Assembly: GCA_002746295.2 (NCBI GenBank)
Contig: NVWS02000047.1
Span: 1-47,071 of the forward strand
Length of the DNA: 47,071 nucleotides
Reading direction: 5' to 3'
DNA from: Zetaproteobacteria bacterium
GTDB taxonomy: Bacteria > Pseudomonadota > Zetaproteobacteria > Mariprofundales > Mariprofundaceae
The position numbers and the translations under genes were made by a program. The notes below the pieces were generated by a model. The model made no database searches, was not told where the DNA came from, and saw only the letters and a list, made by a program, of their open reading frames with translations. This document shows, one piece after another, positions 39,253 to 44,980 of this stretch (the stretch's first letter is position 1; each line of letters opens with the position of its first letter).

Positions 39253-39501
39253 ATGGCTGCAACTATATTAGCTGATACTGTGATTAGCATTTCAGATCTA
39301 AAAAAGAACCCAACACTTGCAGTAGCACAGGGAGAAGGTTTTCCTGTGGCTGTATTGAATAGAAATAATCCCGAATTTTATTGTCTTCCCGCCGAATCGT
39401 ATGAGGCTTTGTTAAATAAAATTGAAGATTTGGAGTTGAATACCTTGGCAGATTCAAGGGCGAATCAAGCGCGTATAAACGTCAATATAGATGACTTATA
39501 A
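39253..39501 (+). CDS. Phd/YefM-family antitoxin (StbD-like)
   Basis: 82-residue antitoxin. ILADTVISISDLKKNPTLAVAQGEGFPVAVLNRNNPEFYCLPAESYEALL is the DNA-binding Phd/YefM fold and is very close to StbD-type antitoxins. The C-terminus (LADSRANQARINVNIDDL) is the toxin-binding tail. AAGGAGG lies 6-12 bases upstream of the ATG. It overlaps the toxin gene by 11 bp, as expected for an autoregulated pair. The module lies between cas1 and cas2-3, in the same direction. Confidence 0.92.
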   Translation: MAATILADTVISISDLKKNPTLAVAQGEGFPVAVLNRNNPEFYCLPAESYEALLNKIEDLELNTLADSRANQARINVNIDDL

Positions 39502-39781
39502 ACTTGAATTTGTACGCGATGCTTTCAAAGAATGGAAAGCCCTGGATGCAAGCATTCAGAAGCAGTTCAAGAAAAAATTAGCGCAGCGTTTGGAAGAATC
39601 AGAAGTTGCCTTAGCTCGTTTGATTGGTTCACAACATCGTTACAAAATAAAACTTCGTAGTGCTGGATTCCGTCTGGTTTATGAAGTGCAGCAGCAAGCC
39701 GTGTTGGTATTGGTGGTTGCTGTCGGTAAACGTGAACGCAATACCGTCTATAAAGCTGCGGCGAAACGACTATTGCCATGA
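39491..39781 (+). CDS. RelE/ParE-family toxin (StbE-like)
   Basis: 96-residue mRNA-interferase-type toxin, the partner of the preceding antitoxin. TYKLEFVRDAFKEWKALDASIQKQFKKKLAQRLE is the RelE helical part, and YKIKLRSAGFRLVYEVQQQAVLVLVVAVGKRERNTVYKAAAKRL the beta sheet with the conserved basic residues. Length and motifs look intact. Its TGA stop overlaps the ATGATG of the chimeric cas fragment that follows, the position that the start of cas2-3 would occupy. Confidence 0.92.
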   Translation: MTYKLEFVRDAFKEWKALDASIQKQFKKKLAQRLEESEVALARLIGSQHRYKIKLRSAGFRLVYEVQQQAVLVLVVAVGKRERNTVYKAAAKRLLP

Positions 39782-39899
39782 TGGCGACCTTTGTTTCCCA
39801 ATGTGAAAAAAAATCCCTGCCTAAAACACGGCACGGCGCATTGCTCTTTGATGTGCTGGATTTAATCAAGGCTACCTTGATTTTACCGGGGGCATTTAT
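39778..39899 (+). pseudogene. Chimeric cas fragment: start of cas2-3 joined to the 3' part of cas1
   Basis: Bases 39778-39830 match the first 53 bases of cas2-3 (40336-40388) at 48 of 53 positions, giving MMATFVSQCEKKSLPKTR. From 39823 the sequence instead matches cas1 38998-39073 (GALLFDVLDLIKATLILPGAFI against GALVFDVADLIKDTLILPWAFI), about 67 of 77 bases. The switch falls in AAAACACG, shared by both genes. The cas1-derived part stops at 39899, where a MITE-like repeat begins. The frame stays open to 40002 through the repeat but is unlikely to make a useful protein. Confidence 0.85.
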
Positions 39900-39976
39900 A
39901 GTCATTCAATCGTCACCCTCGAGTGCTTGTATCGAGGGTCTATCATTAGATTCCCGATACAAGATTCCGGGAATGT
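39898..39976. mobile_element. Shortened inverted copy of the MITE-like repeat
   Basis: Matches the reverse complement of the element at 31153-31294. It starts with TATAGTCATTCAA, then lacks about 29 bases of the first copy and rejoins at TCGTCA. It continues with the CCTCGA...TCGAGG and ATTCCCGA...GGGAAT hairpins. The far terminal repeat is not recognisable. It interrupts the cas1-like part of the chimeric fragment. The parD-like gene starts about 30 bp further on. Confidence 0.65.
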
Positions 39977-40006
39977 GTACATTTGATTCCAAACAGAGGT
40001 GAAAAT

Positions 40007-40249
40007 ATGTCCACTACCATGACGATACGTATTGATGAAGAGATTAAAAATCAATTGGGCAAGCTTGCCGAGTCTTCCAATTGTTCGAAATCTTTTTTAG
40101 CCGCAGAACCAATCAAGACATATATTGCGTTGAATGGATGGCAAATGCAGGAGATCGAGACTGCTCTTGTAGAGGCGGATAGTGGTCAGTTTGCCAGCGA
40201 TGAAGAAGTCCATGCCGTGATTGAAAAATGGGTTCCAAGTGAAAATTAA
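40007..40249 (+). CDS. ParD/CopG-type ribbon-helix-helix antitoxin
   Basis: 80-residue antitoxin. The N-terminus TTMTIRIDEEIKNQLGKLAESSNCSKSFLAAEPIKTYIALNGWQMQEIETAL is a ribbon-helix-helix DNA-binding domain typical of ParD/CopG-type antitoxins. SGQFASDEEVHAVIEKW is the usual toxin-binding tail. The ATG at 40007 has AGAGGTG 6-12 bases upstream; a TTG eight codons earlier lies inside the repeat. Its cognate toxin downstream is broken, so this is an orphan antitoxin that could still repress its own promoter or neutralise related toxins. Confidence 0.88.
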   Translation: MSTTMTIRIDEEIKNQLGKLAESSNCSKSFLAAEPIKTYIALNGWQMQEIETALVEADSGQFASDEEVHAVIEKWVPSEN

Positions 40250-40329
40250 ATGGTTGAAAAATGAAAGGTAACAATGTTGAAATTTTACGTGTCTTTCATG
40301 CATCAAGAAAACGACCTGCAAAGTGGTGA
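40239..40329 (+). pseudogene. parE toxin remnant with internal deletion
   Basis: A GTG at 40239 overlapping the antitoxin end gives VKIKWLKNER, the expected start of a ParE toxin, and then a stop at 40269. In another frame, 40276-40329 gives VEILRVFHASRKRPAKW and a stop, the typical ParE C-terminus. The middle (by comparison with ParE length, about 60-65 codons) is missing. The toxin is therefore inactive. The cas2-3 start follows 6 bases after the remnant stop. Confidence 0.8.
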
Positions 40330-40335
40330 CAAACG

Positions 40336-43300
40336 ATGATGGTCACTTTTATTTCCCAATGTGAGAAAAAATCCCTGCCTAAAACACGCCGTGTACTTGA
40401 TGCCTTTGCCAATCGCATTGGCAGCCGTACATGGCAAACAGTCATCACCCAAGAAGGCTTGGATGCGCTCAAAACATTGCTGCGAAGCACTGCATCCAAG
40501 AATACGGCGGTATCCTGCCATTGGTTAAGAAGCCGTAGCCGCAGTGAATTGGTGTGGATCGTGGGCAATCGGAGTAAGTTCAACGCGCAGGGGATTGTGC
40601 CAGTGAACTATACGCAGCAAGAAAATATTTTGAAGCATTCAAATGAAGAGGACTGGTCTTTTTTGCCTGCCATAGAGGCACTTACTGTGTTTTCGGCTCT
40701 GTTGCATGACTTTGGTAAGCTCACTGTATTGTTTCAAGATAAGTTAAAAGGGAAAAGTGAAAGCCAAAGTGACCCACTCAGGCATGAATGGGTTTCGGTA
40801 TTGTTTCTTGTTGCCATTGTAAATCACAAAAGCGATGAGGAGTGGTTAGACAGCCTAATCACTGATGAAGTACACAAGAAAATATCAACCCTTACAGTTT
40901 CTAATGTCTCAAATCCATTAGATAACTTGCCGCCTATTGCAAGCATAGTCGCATGGCTGATTGTTTCGCATCACAAGCTTCCTGTTTTAGAAAAAAATAA
41001 AGGCAAAGGTATACAGTTATTAAAATTATTCTCAGAGATAAATGCCACATGGGGTTATGAGAATACAGAGTTGGGGAAAGATTTTTCTGAATGGTTTAAA
41101 TATGCTGAATTACCAAGTAAATCTATAGAGTGGCAATGGGAAATCAAAAGCTATGCGATTAAATTGAAGTTATTGTTGCCGCAAATCCACAGCCTCTTTC
41201 ATTCAACATCATTGAGACCTGCCATGACGTATTCACGCATGTCTTTAATGCTTGCTGACCATTTTTATTCATCACAACCCAAAGACCCCAATTGGCATAG
41301 TAGTGTAAAGTTATTTGCCAATACAGACCATCAAAAAAAACTTAAACAACAATTGGATGAACATTTGGTAGGGGTAGCAAGGCAGGCAAAGATAAATATT
41401 AAAAATCTACCGAGGCTTGAAGGTATTTTTAATCAGGATATTCGGATAGTTGATAATGAGAAGTTAAAGCAAAAAAGCCCCAAGGCATATAAGTGGCAAG
41501 ATACTGCCGCGAATAATATCAAAAAATGGAAGCATAAAGAAGAAGGGCTTGATAAACATCAGTTTGGTTTCTTTGCTGTCAATATGGCTTCTACAGGTAA
41601 AGGAAAAACCTTTGCCAATGCAAAAATTATGCAAGCACTATCTGCCAATGAAGAAAGTTTGCGATATATCTTAGCACTGGGTTTAAGAACGCTTACCTTA
41701 CAAACAGGCGATGAATACAAATCTAAAATAGGCTTAAAAGATAATGAATTGGCTGTACTGATTGGCTCTAAAGCCATTGTTGATTTGCACAACCAAAATA
41801 ACACTGGCTCTGAGTCCAGCACCAGCCTTTTTGATAGTGAATTGATATTTGATGAGGATTTTCCAGAACAGGGACTCGATACTGTTTTAAAGAACTCAAA
41901 AGATAGACAGTTTTTATATGCCCCTGTGCTAACTTGCACCATTGACCACATTATCCAAGCGACTGAAATAAAGCGAGGGGGGCGATACATTCTCCCAACC
42001 ATACGGCTCATGTCATCCGATTTGGTGATTGATGAAATTGATGATTTTGATGACACAGATTTAATTGCGATTGGTCGCTTGATTCATCTGGCTGGCATGT
42101 TGGGGCGAAAAGTGATGATTTCATCGGCAACGATTCCACCTGATTTGGCAGAAGGATATTTTAATGTTTATCAATCTGGGTGGAATATTTTTGCAACCAT
42201 GCGTGGGAAAAAAACATCCATCGGCTGTGCTTGGATTGATGAGTTTAGAACGCAAGTCAAAGCCCTAGAAAGCAAAGAAACTTATCAGAAAGAACACGAT
42301 AAATTCATAAATAAACGCATCAAAAATCTTCAACAACAAACTGTAAAACGAAAAGCCAATATTGCCCCATGCAGTACAAACAAGGATTTTAGAGAGTACG
42401 CTGAAGCTATTAAACAAGCTGTTTTAGAAAAACACCATCATCATCATGTGGCTGATACAAAAAGTGATAAGGTCATCAGTATTGGTGTTGTGAGGATGGC
42501 AAACATCAATCCCTGTGTGGAGTTAACGCGCTATCTGTTGGATAATCATTTGGCAGAAGATACAGAAATCAAAGCCATGGCATACCATTCCAGACAAGTA
42601 TTGCTTATGCGCCATAAACAAGAAAAATACTTGGATAAAATACTCAAGCGACATCAAGGCGATGAGCATATTTTTAATGATGCGGTGATTCGCAACCATA
42701 TCGAACAATCCAAAGCCAAAAACATCATATTTGTATTGGTAGCAACGCCAGTGGAAGAGGTTGGGCGTGACCATGATTTTGATTGGGCAGTGATTGAACC
42801 TTCATCATATCGCTCGTTTGTTCAAATGGCAGGACGGGTGCTGCGGCATCGAGATAAAGAAGTTCAAGAACCGAATGTTGCGATTATGAAGTATAATTAC
42901 AGAGCCTTAAAAACTGGTGGTAAGAAAGTTGCGTTTCGCTGGCCTGGTTATCAAGAGAAAACAAAGGACTTAACAAGCTATGACTTGGATCAGTTGGTTA
43001 ATACCCAAGAATTAGCAAAAAACCTTGATGCAACCAACCGTATCAAGAAAACAGGAACATCTGAATTAGCAGGCTTAGAGCATAAAGTGATTCATCAGCA
43101 TTTAACCAGTTATGAAAAAGAAGGTCCTGAATCCATGCAGGGCTGGCTTGATAGTGCTTGGTGGCTAACAGGTGTACCGCAGGAATATGTCAGGTTTAGG
43201 AACAGTAGTCCGGACTTAACGGTGTTTTTAACTGCTGATAATGAGATGATAGAAAAAGGGAAGAGAGGGAATACGACTACTATAGGGAGAGACAATGTGG

Positions 43301-43503
43301 AATTTAATATGGATAAGCTGCCCAACTTATGGTTGAAAAGGGACTACAAAGCCCTGCTTCAAGAACAAGTGGATAAGCTAGGGCTAGATATTGAAAAAGT
43401 AGAACTGATTTATGGGGAAATCAACTTACCCATCTATGGCAAGACCTTAGAGCCCAATGATCGGTTCATATATCATGAGCAGTTGGGGCTTACTAAAGTA
43501 TAG
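40336..43503 (+). CDS. cas3f: Type I-F Cas2-Cas3 fusion helicase-nuclease
   Basis: 1055 residues. The N-terminal Cas2-like domain (about 1-95) pairs with Cas1 for adaptation. The HD nuclease domain starts with ALLHDFGK (H124-D125). The superfamily 2 helicase has Walker A S419-TGKGKT425, the Walker B box D566-E-I-D569, and motif VI Q830-MAGRVLRHR839; VATPVEEVGRDHDFDWAVIEPSSYRS precedes it. A C-terminal domain follows. All key motifs look intact, so interference should work. The start lies 6 bases after a broken parE, with no strong ribosome site; normally it would directly follow cas1. The final codons overlap the degenerate repeat annotated at 43496-43572. Confidence 0.95.
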   Translation: MMVTFISQCEKKSLPKTRRVLDAFANRIGSRTWQTVITQEGLDALKTLLRSTASKNTAVSCHWLRSRSRSELVWIVGNRSKFNAQGIVPVNYTQQENILKHSNEEDWSFLPAIEALTVFSALLHDFGKLTVLFQDKLKGKSESQSDPLRHEWVSVLFLVAIVNHKSDEEWLDSLITDEVHKKISTLTVSNVSNPLDNLPPIASIVAWLIVSHHKLPVLEKNKGKGIQLLKLFSEINATWGYENTELGKDFSEWFKYAELPSKSIEWQWEIKSYAIKLKLLLPQIHSLFHSTSLRPAMTYSRMSLMLADHFYSSQPKDPNWHSSVKLFANTDHQKKLKQQLDEHLVGVARQAKINIKNLPRLEGIFNQDIRIVDNEKLKQKSPKAYKWQDTAANNIKKWKHKEEGLDKHQFGFFAVNMASTGKGKTFANAKIMQALSANEESLRYILALGLRTLTLQTGDEYKSKIGLKDNELAVLIGSKAIVDLHNQNNTGSESSTSLFDSELIFDEDFPEQGLDTVLKNSKDRQFLYAPVLTCTIDHIIQATEIKRGGRYILPTIRLMSSDLVIDEIDDFDDTDLIAIGRLIHLAGMLGRKVMISSATIPPDLAEGYFNVYQSGWNIFATMRGKKTSIGCAWIDEFRTQVKALESKETYQKEHDKFINKRIKNLQQQTVKRKANIAPCSTNKDFREYAEAIKQAVLEKHHHHHVADTKSDKVISIGVVRMANINPCVELTRYLLDNHLAEDTEIKAMAYHSRQVLLMRHKQEKYLDKILKRHQGDEHIFNDAVIRNHIEQSKAKNIIFVLVATPVEEVGRDHDFDWAVIEPSSYRSFVQMAGRVLRHRDKEVQEPNVAIMKYNYRALKTGGKKVAFRWPGYQEKTKDLTSYDLDQLVNTQELAKNLDATNRIKKTGTSELAGLEHKVIHQHLTSYEKEGPESMQGWLDSAWWLTGVPQEYVRFRNSSPDLTVFLTADNEMIEKGKRGNTTTIGRDNVEFNMDKLPNLWLKRDYKALLQEQVDKLGLDIEKVELIYGEINLPIYGKTLEPNDRFIYHEQLGLTKV

Positions 43504-43572
43504 CTGCCTGTGCGGCAGTCAATGAATACAACAAAGTATTATATTTTCTAAGCTTTCTATGCGAAAGAATTG
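43496..43572 (-). CRISPR. Degenerate single-spacer type I-F mini-CRISPR (crRNA-like), antisense to cas
   Basis: Read on the minus strand. The upstream pseudo-repeat (43572-43545) has hairpin CTTTC-GCATA-GAAAG and then CTTAGAAA, a perfect 8-base I-F crRNA 5' handle. A 21-base pseudo-spacer follows (43544-43524, beginning ATATAATACTTTG). The downstream pseudo-repeat (43523-43496) has CTGCC-GCACA-GGCAG, identical to the classic I-F repeat hairpin of Yersinia/Pectobacterium type. The pieces one mature crRNA needs are conserved (5' handle, spacer, 3' Cas6f hairpin), while the unneeded outer parts have decayed. The 28-base consensus is known from the family; no full array is in the window for direct comparison. 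Confidence 0.78.
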
Positions 43573-43575
43573 GGA

Positions 43576-43604
43576 ATCATAATAAAAGATGACTGCTTTT
43601 GAAA
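43576..43604 (-). promoter_or_regulatory. Possible sigma-70 promoter of the crRNA-like gene
   Basis: On the minus strand, TTTCAA (43604-43599) is a weak -35 box. A 17-base spacer leads to TATGAT (43581-43576), which matches TATAAT at 5 of 6. Transcription would start near 43569, just at the 5' end of the first pseudo-repeat hairpin, and run towards the 3' end of cas2-3. Confidence 0.4.
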
Positions 43605-43624
43605 ACTAAAATTTACTTACCATT

Positions 43625-43645
43625 TTATAACCAAGTAATATATGG
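43625..43645 (-). promoter_or_regulatory. Predicted target site (CC PAM plus partial protospacer) of the crRNA-like RNA
   Basis: The minus strand reads CC (43645-43644, the I-F PAM) and then ATATATTACTTGGTTATA. Against the pseudo-spacer, positions 1-18 match except 6, 12 and 16. Positions 6 and 12 are bases flipped out of the guide-target duplex in type I complexes, so the effective seed is perfect. The PAM abuts the TTGACA -35 box of the csy promoter, so Cascade bound here would block RNA polymerase. Confidence 0.65.
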
Positions 43646-43675
43646 TTGACATGTATAAATGATTGAGGCTACTGT
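43646..43675 (+). promoter_or_regulatory. Probable sigma-70 promoter of the csy1-4 operon
   Basis: TTGACA (43646-43651) is a perfect -35 box. With an 18-base spacer, TACTGT (43670-43675) has the conserved TA...T of a -10 box but is otherwise weak. The start would be near 43682, leaving a leader of about 48 bases before csy1. It lies in the only sizeable gap between cas2-3 and csy1. Confidence 0.45.
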
Positions 43676-43729
43676 TGCGGTATAAAGTGGAATGATAGAA
43701 AGGAAAGCTGACGCTGATAGGAGTGGCTC

Positions 43730-44980
43730 ATGTTAGATAAAGCGATTGCAGAATTTTTAGAGAGTAAGAAACAAGACTTTTTAAAGAAAAAAAATAAAGG
43801 CAATGTAAGCGATGAGGATAAACAAAGCTTTATTCTAGAGTCTGAAAATAAATATAGCCTTGAAAACTGGTTAATAGATGCTTCTAAACGCGCCAAACAA
43901 TTATCGTTGACATCTCACCCTGCTAAGTTTGTTCATCCCAATGCTAAAACAAGCAGTGTTATTGCACATGCAAAGCAAGAAAATGATGGTTTGTTGCGTT
44001 CGGGTAATGTTGATGTGCAACTTGATATATTTGGTAATGCCGCAGCTTTGGATGTGGAAAAATTTTTAAGAGTAAGACTGCAAGATGGTAAGACTGTTTT
44101 ACAACATTTGGAAGAAAATACAGGCGTTATTCAAGAGCAATTTACCATAGAAGGAATTGATTATAAAAAAGTTCGGGATGACTTTATGCGCGTTAAAAGC
44201 TCGGATTTGAATCAAACCAGCGAAAAGATAAAGCAAGTCTATTTCCCTGTTGGTAATGCTTATCACTTGTTATCTATTTTGAATTCATCAGGCATTATTT
44301 ATAAGTTGAAGAGTGAGGTAAATGGTCTGCGGTTTTCTGAAGAAAACAAGCAGTTGCGTGAAGCATTGAAAAAGGCAAATCCGCAGCCCATGCAAGGAAC
44401 AATTTCTGATTTATATGGACTGGTAGCATTGGGTTATGGTGGAACAAAACCACAAAATATTAGCACCTTAAACAACCAAAATGGCGGGGTAAGTTTGCTC
44501 TTGCCTTCGCTTCCACCGAATTTATCCAAGCGAAAAGTACAACCACCCAAAAAAGATTTTTTTGATAGTTGTTTATGGGATGGTCTGTTTCAAAGTGATT
44601 TTGAAGCTTTTCATGAAGTGCTTACTTGGCGTAAAAACAATAAAAAAATCAGGGATAAGCGTGATGATATTGTGCTTAACGCCATAGCGAAGGTGAAAAG
44701 ACTTATAGAAAGTATTCGAGATATACATGTTGGTTGGTCAGACAGTGAAACATACAATGGCTTGCTTCGTTGGCAAAAGATTTGGCTGGATGAACAATAT
44801 GCAGATATAAGACATGATAAATCACTCAATGATGACTACTTAACCAAAGCACAAAGCTATTTCTCGAATTGGTTTATTAACCATTATAAATCTGTAATAA
44901 AAGACAGTAAATTATTGGGTGATGATGATATTCAGCATGTCAAAAAAGTTCTCAACGATGAGCAGGTACTATTGAAATGA
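43730..44980 (+). CDS. csy1: Csy complex large subunit Csy1 (Cas8f)
   Basis: Subunit of the type I-F surveillance complex that recognises the CC PAM and holds the crRNA 5' handle together with Csy2. 416 residues. Family blocks: LTSHPAKFVHPNAKTSSVIA, VYFPVGNAYHLLSILNSSGI and GYGGTKPQNISTLNNQNGG, the last containing the Lys/Asn PAM-reading region. The ATG at 43730 has AGGAG 7-11 bases upstream. Expression probably starts from the promoter at 43646-43675. Overlaps csy2 by 4 bp. Confidence 0.95.
   Translation: MLDKAIAEFLESKKQDFLKKKNKGNVSDEDKQSFILESENKYSLENWLIDASKRAKQLSLTSHPAKFVHPNAKTSSVIAHAKQENDGLLRSGNVDVQLDIFGNAAALDVEKFLRVRLQDGKTVLQHLEENTGVIQEQFTIEGIDYKKVRDDFMRVKSSDLNQTSEKIKQVYFPVGNAYHLLSILNSSGIIYKLKSEVNGLRFSEENKQLREALKKANPQPMQGTISDLYGLVALGYGGTKPQNISTLNNQNGGVSLLLPSLPPNLSKRKVQPPKKDFFDSCLWDGLFQSDFEAFHEVLTWRKNNKKIRDKRDDIVLNAIAKVKRLIESIRDIHVGWSDSETYNGLLRWQKIWLDEQYADIRHDKSLNDDYLTKAQSYFSNWFINHYKSVIKDSKLLGDDDIQHVKKVLNDEQVLLK

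What the first reader, a model, noticed from the sequence alone, without database searches (positions are those of the whole stretch)
43496..43675. A single-unit crRNA-like gene that appears to aim the Csy complex at its own operon promoter
Seen: in the 226-bp gap between cas2-3 and csy1, two degenerate I-F repeats flank a 21-nt pseudo-spacer on the minus strand. The pseudo-spacer (starting ATATAATACTT) matches 43643-43626 at 15 of the first 18 positions. The mismatches are at 6, 12 and 16. A CC PAM sits at 43645-43644, touching the TTGACA -35 box of csy1. Known: type I guides do not read every sixth base, I-F needs CC, and partial matches allow binding without cleavage. Crr-like regulators (CreR, CreA) are described for other CRISPR types. 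Inference: autorepression of csy1-4, relieved when real crRNAs or anti-CRISPRs occupy the complex.
Basis: partly seen in the sequence, partly recalled or inferred. Interest (0 to 1): 0.95.

Follow-up and report, generated by a model that had tools for sequence, protein, structure and literature searches.

The report
CRISPR guide silencing its own operon
Between two genes of a bacterial CRISPR immune system lies a tiny one-guide CRISPR unit whose guide matches the switch of the next genes, so the defence most likely turns itself down; the same guide-plus-target pair recurs with co-changing sequences in dozens of relatives, but the kind of device is already known.

Summary
In the 226-bp cas2-3/csy1 gap of a Mariprofundaceae-like (Zetaproteobacteria) type I-F locus, a minus-strand mini-CRISPR (PsiR1 43572-43545, PsiS 43544-43524, PsiR2 43523-43496) matches 43643-43626 at 15 of 18 positions, mismatching at 6, 12 and 16. 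A CC PAM abuts the TTGACA of the csy1 promoter. It is not chance: 0 of 20,000 shuffles reach the score, under two controls. Among 94 csy1 upstream regions, 34 distinct mini-arrays were found. In all 34 the best match in the region lies 5' of csy1 and is CC-flanked even when no PAM is required. Guides and targets differ widely between loci and co-vary. Mismatches pile up at positions 6 and 12 (44/68) against 26/442 elsewhere in positions 1-15. PsiS lengths cluster near 14/20/26/32, the Cas7f pitch. The window belongs to the 'direct' class, where the target sits 52-107 nt before csy1 with no toxin gene between. Best reading: CreR-like RNA-guided autorepression of csy1-4. It resembles the Acinetobacter I-F CreTA module in the same gap, minus the toxin. 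The novelty is overstated: new member of a known kind.

The parts
43545..43572 (-). PsiR1: degenerate I-F repeat with intact 5-bp stem (CTTTC/GAAAG), 5-nt loop and the 8-nt 5' handle CTTAGAAA
   Evidence: stem pairing kept by double changes across 30 PsiR1 sequences
43524..43544 (-). PsiS: 21-nt pseudo-spacer (guide), near the length L=6N-4 for N=4 Cas7f subunits
   Evidence: length rule in PMC7296934
43496..43523 (-). PsiR2: repeat-like element (stem-loop identical to the genome's CRISPR repeat) that would give the 3' handle
43623..43643 (-). Target (protospacer-like) of PsiS; 15/18 matches, mismatches at 6, 12, 16
43644..43645 (-). CC PAM
   Evidence: in 34 of 34 related loci the best match is CC-flanked without PAM being required
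43646..43651 (+). TTGACA -35 box of the csy1 promoter, adjoining the PAM
   Evidence: TTG 0-2 nt after the PAM in 23 of 34 loci against 9.7% background
43670..43675 (+). TACTGT, probable -10 box (18-bp spacing; weak)
43719..43723 (+). AGGAG Shine-Dalgarno of csy1
43730..44980 (+). csy1 (cas8f), first gene of the csy1-4 operon presumed to be repressed
   Evidence: Pfam PF09611 E=3.6e-97
40336..43503 (+). cas2-3, upstream neighbour
   Evidence: Pfam PF21384, PF22590, PF18019
43576..43605 (-). Possible promoter of the mini-array (TTTTCA-18-TATGAT); weak, within chance expectation

Best explanation
A CreR-like autoregulator of a type I-F1 CRISPR-Cas locus. A short minus-strand transcript is cut by Cas6f (Csy4) at two repeat-like hairpins into a crRNA with a 21-nt guide. 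It loads a shortened Csy complex (about 4 Cas7f). The complex binds the CC-flanked partial match just upstream of, and touching, the csy1 -35 box, and blocks RNA polymerase, lowering csy1-4 expression. The short, imperfect R-loop cannot recruit Cas2/3, so the chromosome is not cut. Real crRNAs or anti-CRISPRs that occupy or disable Csy would relieve repression. Shown here: anatomy, non-randomness, co-variation, sixth-base skipping, promoter position, absence of a recognisable toxin gene. Inferred from published I-F biochemistry and analogues: processing, binding without cleavage, repression, relief.
For: Exact architecture and match, none of 20,000 shuffles as good. 34 distinct mini-arrays in 94 csy1 upstream regions; the hairpin finder gave 37 raw hits against 0-5 in shuffles, and a target-first scan gave 31 hits against 0 in 20 shuffle rounds. 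Own guide-target pairs score >=85% in 30/34, mispaired ones in 11/1122, all between similar loci. Same best site with or without requiring the PAM, 34/34. Mismatches: 0/170 at positions 1-5, 44/68 at 6 and 12, 26/442 elsewhere in 1-15 (Fisher p 6e-28; loci are not fully independent). PsiS lengths 15, 19-21, 24-27, 29, 31-33 (Rayleigh period 6, p about 2e-6), close to L=6N-4. PsiR1 stems: 32 cells with double compensatory changes against 8.8 shuffled. TTG right after the PAM in 23/34 against 9.7% background. Same-genus L010: the 68-nt core of the mini-array and the next 49 nt are identical, while the cas3 tail is 86.6% and csy1 94.5% identical. I-F1 complexes with truncated spacers bind and form R-loops but do not trigger Cas2/3 (PMC7296934). 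The analogous Acinetobacter CreA guides Csy to repress a promoter about 7-fold, dependent on Csy4 (PMC10097628).
Against: No expression data for this organism (a MAG-like draft genome). The csy1 -10 box and the mini-array's own promoter are weak. Closest relatives in csy1 either lack the gap (L083, L055) or carry an extra conserved stretch between target and csy1 (L053, L054), so the element is gained and lost and not essential. Readthrough from cas2-3 could still feed csy1.
Confidence: 0.85

Rival explanations
1. A CreTA module: the guide represses a small RNA or peptide toxin encoded in the csy1 leader, so that loss of Csy is punished.
For: The same gap in Acinetobacter carries CreTA (PMC10097628). 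The nearest csy1 relatives with a mini-array (L053, L054) and L057 have a longer conserved stretch between target and csy1, and L023, L029, L071, L074, L077 have creT-like leaders (read by eye). The window leader holds a 14-codon frame, ATG ATA GAA AGG..., overlapping the csy1 start.
Against: PAM to csy1 is only 84 nt, leaving about 45 nt of transcript before csy1. The window falls in the direct class (52-107 nt, 23 loci by tree labels) and not the long class (183-311 nt, 11 loci). No recognisable similarity to either leader type. The 14-codon frame has two non-synonymous and no synonymous changes against L010 (read by eye), so no sign of coding.
Confidence: 0.06
2. A decaying remnant of an ordinary CRISPR array; the match to the promoter is accidental.
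For: Repeats are degenerate, and I-F arrays commonly lie near cas genes.
Against: Match not reached in 20,000 shuffles; co-variation in 34 loci; stems kept by compensatory changes; 117 identical nt against the sister species.
Confidence: 0.01
3. An inhibitory repeat decoy (Racr-like) or a transcript-end hairpin for cas2-3, with no guided targeting.
For: The PsiR2 hairpin lies right after the cas2-3 stop, and on the minus strand it scores as terminator-like.
Against: Does not explain the guide-target match, CC PAM, sixth-base pattern or length steps. The plus strand has no U-run after the hairpin.
Confidence: 0.01
4. Same guide and target, but the main effect is on something other than csy1 level, such as blocking readthrough from cas2-3, repressing the mini-array's own promoter, or providing primed adaptation.
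For: The target lies between the two divergent promoters (the minus-strand one only weakly predicted), and any bound complex is also a roadblock.
Against: The target tracks the -35 box of the csy1-facing promoter across loci (23/34); truncated R-loops do not recruit Cas2/3.
Confidence: 0.07

Closest known systems
I-F CreTA (CreA guide) of Acinetobacter sp. WCHA45/LoGeW2-3/ANC3789 (PMC10097628)
   Same: Same cas3-csy1 gap, PsiR1-PsiS-PsiR2 on the opposite strand, about 20-nt guide, CC PAM, partial match skipping position 6, divergent target promoter.
   Different: Acinetobacter has a creT RNA with a 33-bp mini-ORF between target and csy1 in a roughly 400-bp gap, and its target lies downstream of the creT start. 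The window has a 226-bp gap, no recognisable creT, and a target immediately upstream of the csy1 -35 box.
CreR (cas-regulating RNAs) of types I-B, I-E and V-A (Liu et al. 2023, as summarised in PMC13131331 and PMC12737573)
   Same: Mini-CRISPR whose guide partly matches a cas promoter; autorepression is the proposed role.
   Different: Subtype I-F is not in the list given in the reviews read; repression in the window is not measured.
Type I-F1 regulatory mini-arrays of Shmakov et al. 2023 NAR (from memory; paper not held)
   Same: As recalled: standalone mini-arrays in type I loci with spacers partly complementary to cas8 promoters, one I-F1 case tested as a regulatory guide.
   Different: Could not be compared locus by locus; whether a zetaproteobacterial case is listed is unknown.
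Cas9 autoregulation by a natural single-guide RNA (Workman et al. 2021, cited in PMC10651486)
   Same: Effector represses its own operon through a natural guide.
   Different: Type II, guide derived from tracrRNA, no mini-array (own knowledge).

Membership tests
CreR / regulatory mini-array | Two repeat-like elements flanking one spacer, close to cas genes | tested here: met
CreR / regulatory mini-array | Guide partly complementary to the cas operon promoter beside a proper PAM | tested here: met
CreR / regulatory mini-array | Guide-target pairing maintained by selection | tested here: met
   34 of 34 loci with matched pairs; mispairing control
CreR / regulatory mini-array | No toxin gene under the repressed promoter | tested here: met
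   84 nt from PAM to csy1, no recognisable creT or ORF of note
CreR / regulatory mini-array | Effector-dependent repression of cas transcription, relieved by crRNA load or Acr | not testable with these tools
   needs expression experiments
I-F CreTA | Mini-CRISPR in the cas3-csy1 gap with CC-flanked target | tested here: met
I-F CreTA | creT RNA toxin gene with SD and 33-bp mini-ORF downstream of the target | tested here: not met
   no visible similarity to L023/L029 leaders, and too little room
I-F CreTA | Toxicity on loss of Csy | not testable with these tools
   needs experiment
Ordinary CRISPR array | About 32-nt spacers and near-identical repeats, spacers unrelated to the own locus | tested here: not met
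   21-nt guide, degenerate PsiR1, match to own promoter; the real array is on contig C67 with 43 repeats matching the pattern

The most novel reading that the evidence does not exclude
Type I-F loci carry a widespread, self-aimed guide whose sequence turns over completely while three rules stay fixed: CC PAM beside the -35 box, unread sixth bases free to drift, and guide length in Cas7f steps (about 14/20/26/32). The same slot switches repeatedly between plain autorepression of csy1 and guarding an inserted toxin or small-protein gene. The window would be a zetaproteobacterial case whose nearest mini-array-bearing relatives outside its genus are of the long, toxin-like type.
Probability: 0.4. 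Interest if true: 0.65.

Novelty: new member of a known kind. Interest (0 to 1): 0.5.

Why it matters
It gives a clean natural example of a CRISPR effector used as its own transcriptional repressor in a subtype for which the reviews read list only other types (I-B, I-E, V-A). The 34 matched pairs form a ready comparative data set for what a Csy complex reads when it binds without cutting. They also suggest that toxin-guarding (CreTA-like) and self-repressing (CreR-like) versions replace each other at one genomic slot, which bears on how such addiction modules arise. The guide and its target are short enough to test directly with a reporter.

Tried and rejected
One region request was malformed, and the genome search would not take a locus id as a centre, solved through handles. 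Shmakov 2023 is not held, and the held papers that cite it or might have described it did not give its I-F1 result, so that comparison rests on memory. A viral-contig scan for the handle plus guide found nothing, so no phage copy of this guide is known here. The promoter scan did not report the csy1 promoter and returned only weak minus-strand sites; the csy1 promoter was scored separately. The first finder masked the neighbourhood of PsiR1 and wrongly gave L065 and L099 no target; unmasking gave 12/15 and 15/15. L060 has a visible mini-array but only a 12/15 match with an odd PsiR1, and was left out. L075 was a false finder hit and was dropped. L115 was counted as direct because its csy1 start lies nearer the target than first set (read by eye). 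Linking array contig C67 to csy4 failed: its start holds no csy4 end.

Full report
What is there. The window is contig C19 of a 2.09-Mb genome whose closest named relative at this locus is a Mariprofundaceae MAG (JAUZQO010000063, 93% identical Csy1). The locus reads cas1, toxin-antitoxin genes, cas2-3, a 226-bp gap, csy1, then csy2, csy3 and csy4 (the last cut by the contig end) (csy2-4 named from order and operon layout). In the gap, on the minus strand, lie two repeat-like hairpins around a 21-nt spacer. PsiR2 keeps the exact stem-loop of the genome's own repeat (CTGCCGCACAGGCAG). PsiR1 has a changed but fully paired stem (CTTTC/GAAAG) and the standard handle CTTAGAAA. The spacer matches 43643-43626 at 15 of 18 positions, with mismatches at 6, 12 and 16, next to CC, next to TTGACA. 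Every coordinate in the finding is right.

Is it chance? No. With positions 6, 12 and 18 ignored, the match is 14/15. Over 20,000 shuffles of the spacer against the gap, and 20,000 dinucleotide shuffles of the gap, the best CC-flanked score never exceeded 13/15. In the whole window, both strands, no other CC-flanked site exceeds 10/15.

Do guide and target co-vary? I collected 94 csy1 upstream regions, with a few duplicate records, from family, class and order searches and from plasmids. A finder for hairpin + handle + spacer + hairpin on the strand opposite csy1 found 37 raw hits (0-5 in shuffles, 1 in reversed sequence), of which 34 are distinct and real. Every one has a match upstream of csy1. 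When the best site is chosen by all 18 positions without requiring a PAM, the same site wins 34 of 34 times and is CC-flanked each time. Guides are unrelated between many loci, for example TGTTTATTTATGATTGTGAT (L088), CTAACCTCTTCGCTATACA (L077) and ATGTTATAACTGGTATTACC (L028), yet each fits its own target. Own pairs score >=85% in 30 of 34; mispaired guides reach that in 11 of 1122, all between similar loci. Relatedness inflates formal p-values, but the turnover of sequence with pairing kept is hard to explain without selection on pairing.

What the pairs say about mechanism. Position 1-5 mismatches: 0 of 170. Positions 6 and 12: 44 of 68. Other positions up to 15: 26 of 442 (the same counts with unbiased site choice). 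That is the reading pattern of a type I complex, in which every sixth base is flipped out (established knowledge). In Acinetobacter CreA, mutation of guide positions 2-5, 7-9 and 13-17 abolished function while position 12 was dispensable and position 6 is naturally unpaired (PMC10097628). Spacer lengths fall at 15, 19-21, 24-27, 29 and 31-33 (Rayleigh test for period 6, p about 2e-6), near L = 6N-4 for N Cas7f subunits (PMC7296934). PsiR1 stems keep pairing through double changes (32 cells against 8.8 in shuffles), as expected if Cas6f must cut them. I-F1 complexes with spacers shorter than 32 nt bind and open DNA but do not trigger Cas2/3. So binding without self-cutting is the expected outcome for a 21-nt guide.

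Where the target lies. TTG follows the PAM within 0-2 nt in 23 of 34 loci, against 9.7% for GG in general, usually with a -10-like hexamer 16-18 bp on. Distances from PAM to csy1 fall into two groups: 52-107 nt (23 loci, including L115 after correcting its csy1 start) and 183-311 nt (11 loci). In the short group only a leader separates promoter and csy1, so csy1-4 itself must be the regulated gene. In the long group other things are inserted: creT-like leaders in the Acinetobacter-type loci, a different conserved stretch in L053/L054/L057, or a roughly 60-residue ORF in L065/L066. The window (84 nt) is in the short group. On the csy1 tree, direct, long and absent states are interspersed (22 changes against 28.9 shuffled), so the slot is gained, lost and switched often; the quick tree and a conservative finder make that count rough. 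The window's nearest kin are long (L053, L054) or have no gap (L083, L055); only L010 shares its version, with the 68-nt mini-array core and the next 49 nt identical while the cas3 tail is 86.6% and csy1 94.5% identical.

Comparison with what is known. A mini-CRISPR in the same cas3-csy1 gap, with the same parts, CC PAM and a 20-nt guide, is published as CreTA in Acinetobacter; its guide represses a toxin RNA. CreR guides that repress cas promoters are described for I-B, I-E and V-A (PMC13131331; PMC12737573). From memory, Shmakov et al. 2023 report mini-arrays targeting cas8 promoters across type I and a tested I-F1 example; the paper is not held. The window's element therefore works like CreR and is built like I-F CreA, but fails the CreTA test for a toxin gene. 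I file it as a new member of a known kind.

Limits. No RNA or protein evidence exists for this organism. The mini-array's promoter is not convincing by consensus scan, and the csy1 -10 is weak. Relief by crRNAs or anti-CRISPRs is taken over from the CreR literature. The creT-like and small-ORF statements about other loci are by eye, not tested.

Noticed in passing
window 39253-40335: Between cas1 and cas2-3 sits a Phd/YefM-ParE type toxin-antitoxin pair (Pfam PF02604, PF05016), followed by an ORF (39778-40002) that fuses the first residues of Cas2-3 to a piece of the Cas1 C-terminal region. Duplicated DNA blocks of 77 and 53 bp (87-91% identical) underlie it, suggesting a duplication-linked insertion of TA genes into the cas operon.
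   Followed up: partly
L053, L054, L057 between target and csy1: A conserved stretch (GGATGATGCAnCCnnGTATGTGTnnTTAGTCA-like) under the guided promoter, unlike Acinetobacter creT; possibly another CreT-type RNA (seen by eye).
   Followed up: no
L065 and L066 between target and csy1: ORFs of 58 and 63 residues starting MAKRYVRKETLT / MMNKKYVKEETFT under the guided promoter; no Pfam match. Perhaps a small protein kept silent by the guide, as in CrePA.
   Followed up: partly
L026 (Methylomonas koyamae plasmid) 2117-2879: A GNAT acetyltransferase / DUF1778 pair, a typical TA pair, lies in the cas3-csy1 gap on the opposite strand.
   Followed up: no
L113, L114: A single repeat-like hairpin with part of the handle (CTCTGCTGAAAAAGCAGCTTAGC) on the csy1 strand just upstream of csy1; no second repeat found.
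   Followed up: no
G000 contig C67:1-3560 (L130, L131): The genome's I-F array (43 repeats matching the pattern, mostly ending AGAAG) is preceded by small genes that look like another toxin-antitoxin pair by eye, not by csy4.
   Followed up: partly
34 mini-array loci: Pseudo-spacer lengths cluster near 14, 20, 26 and 32 nt, matching the Cas7f 6-nt pitch.
   Followed up: yes
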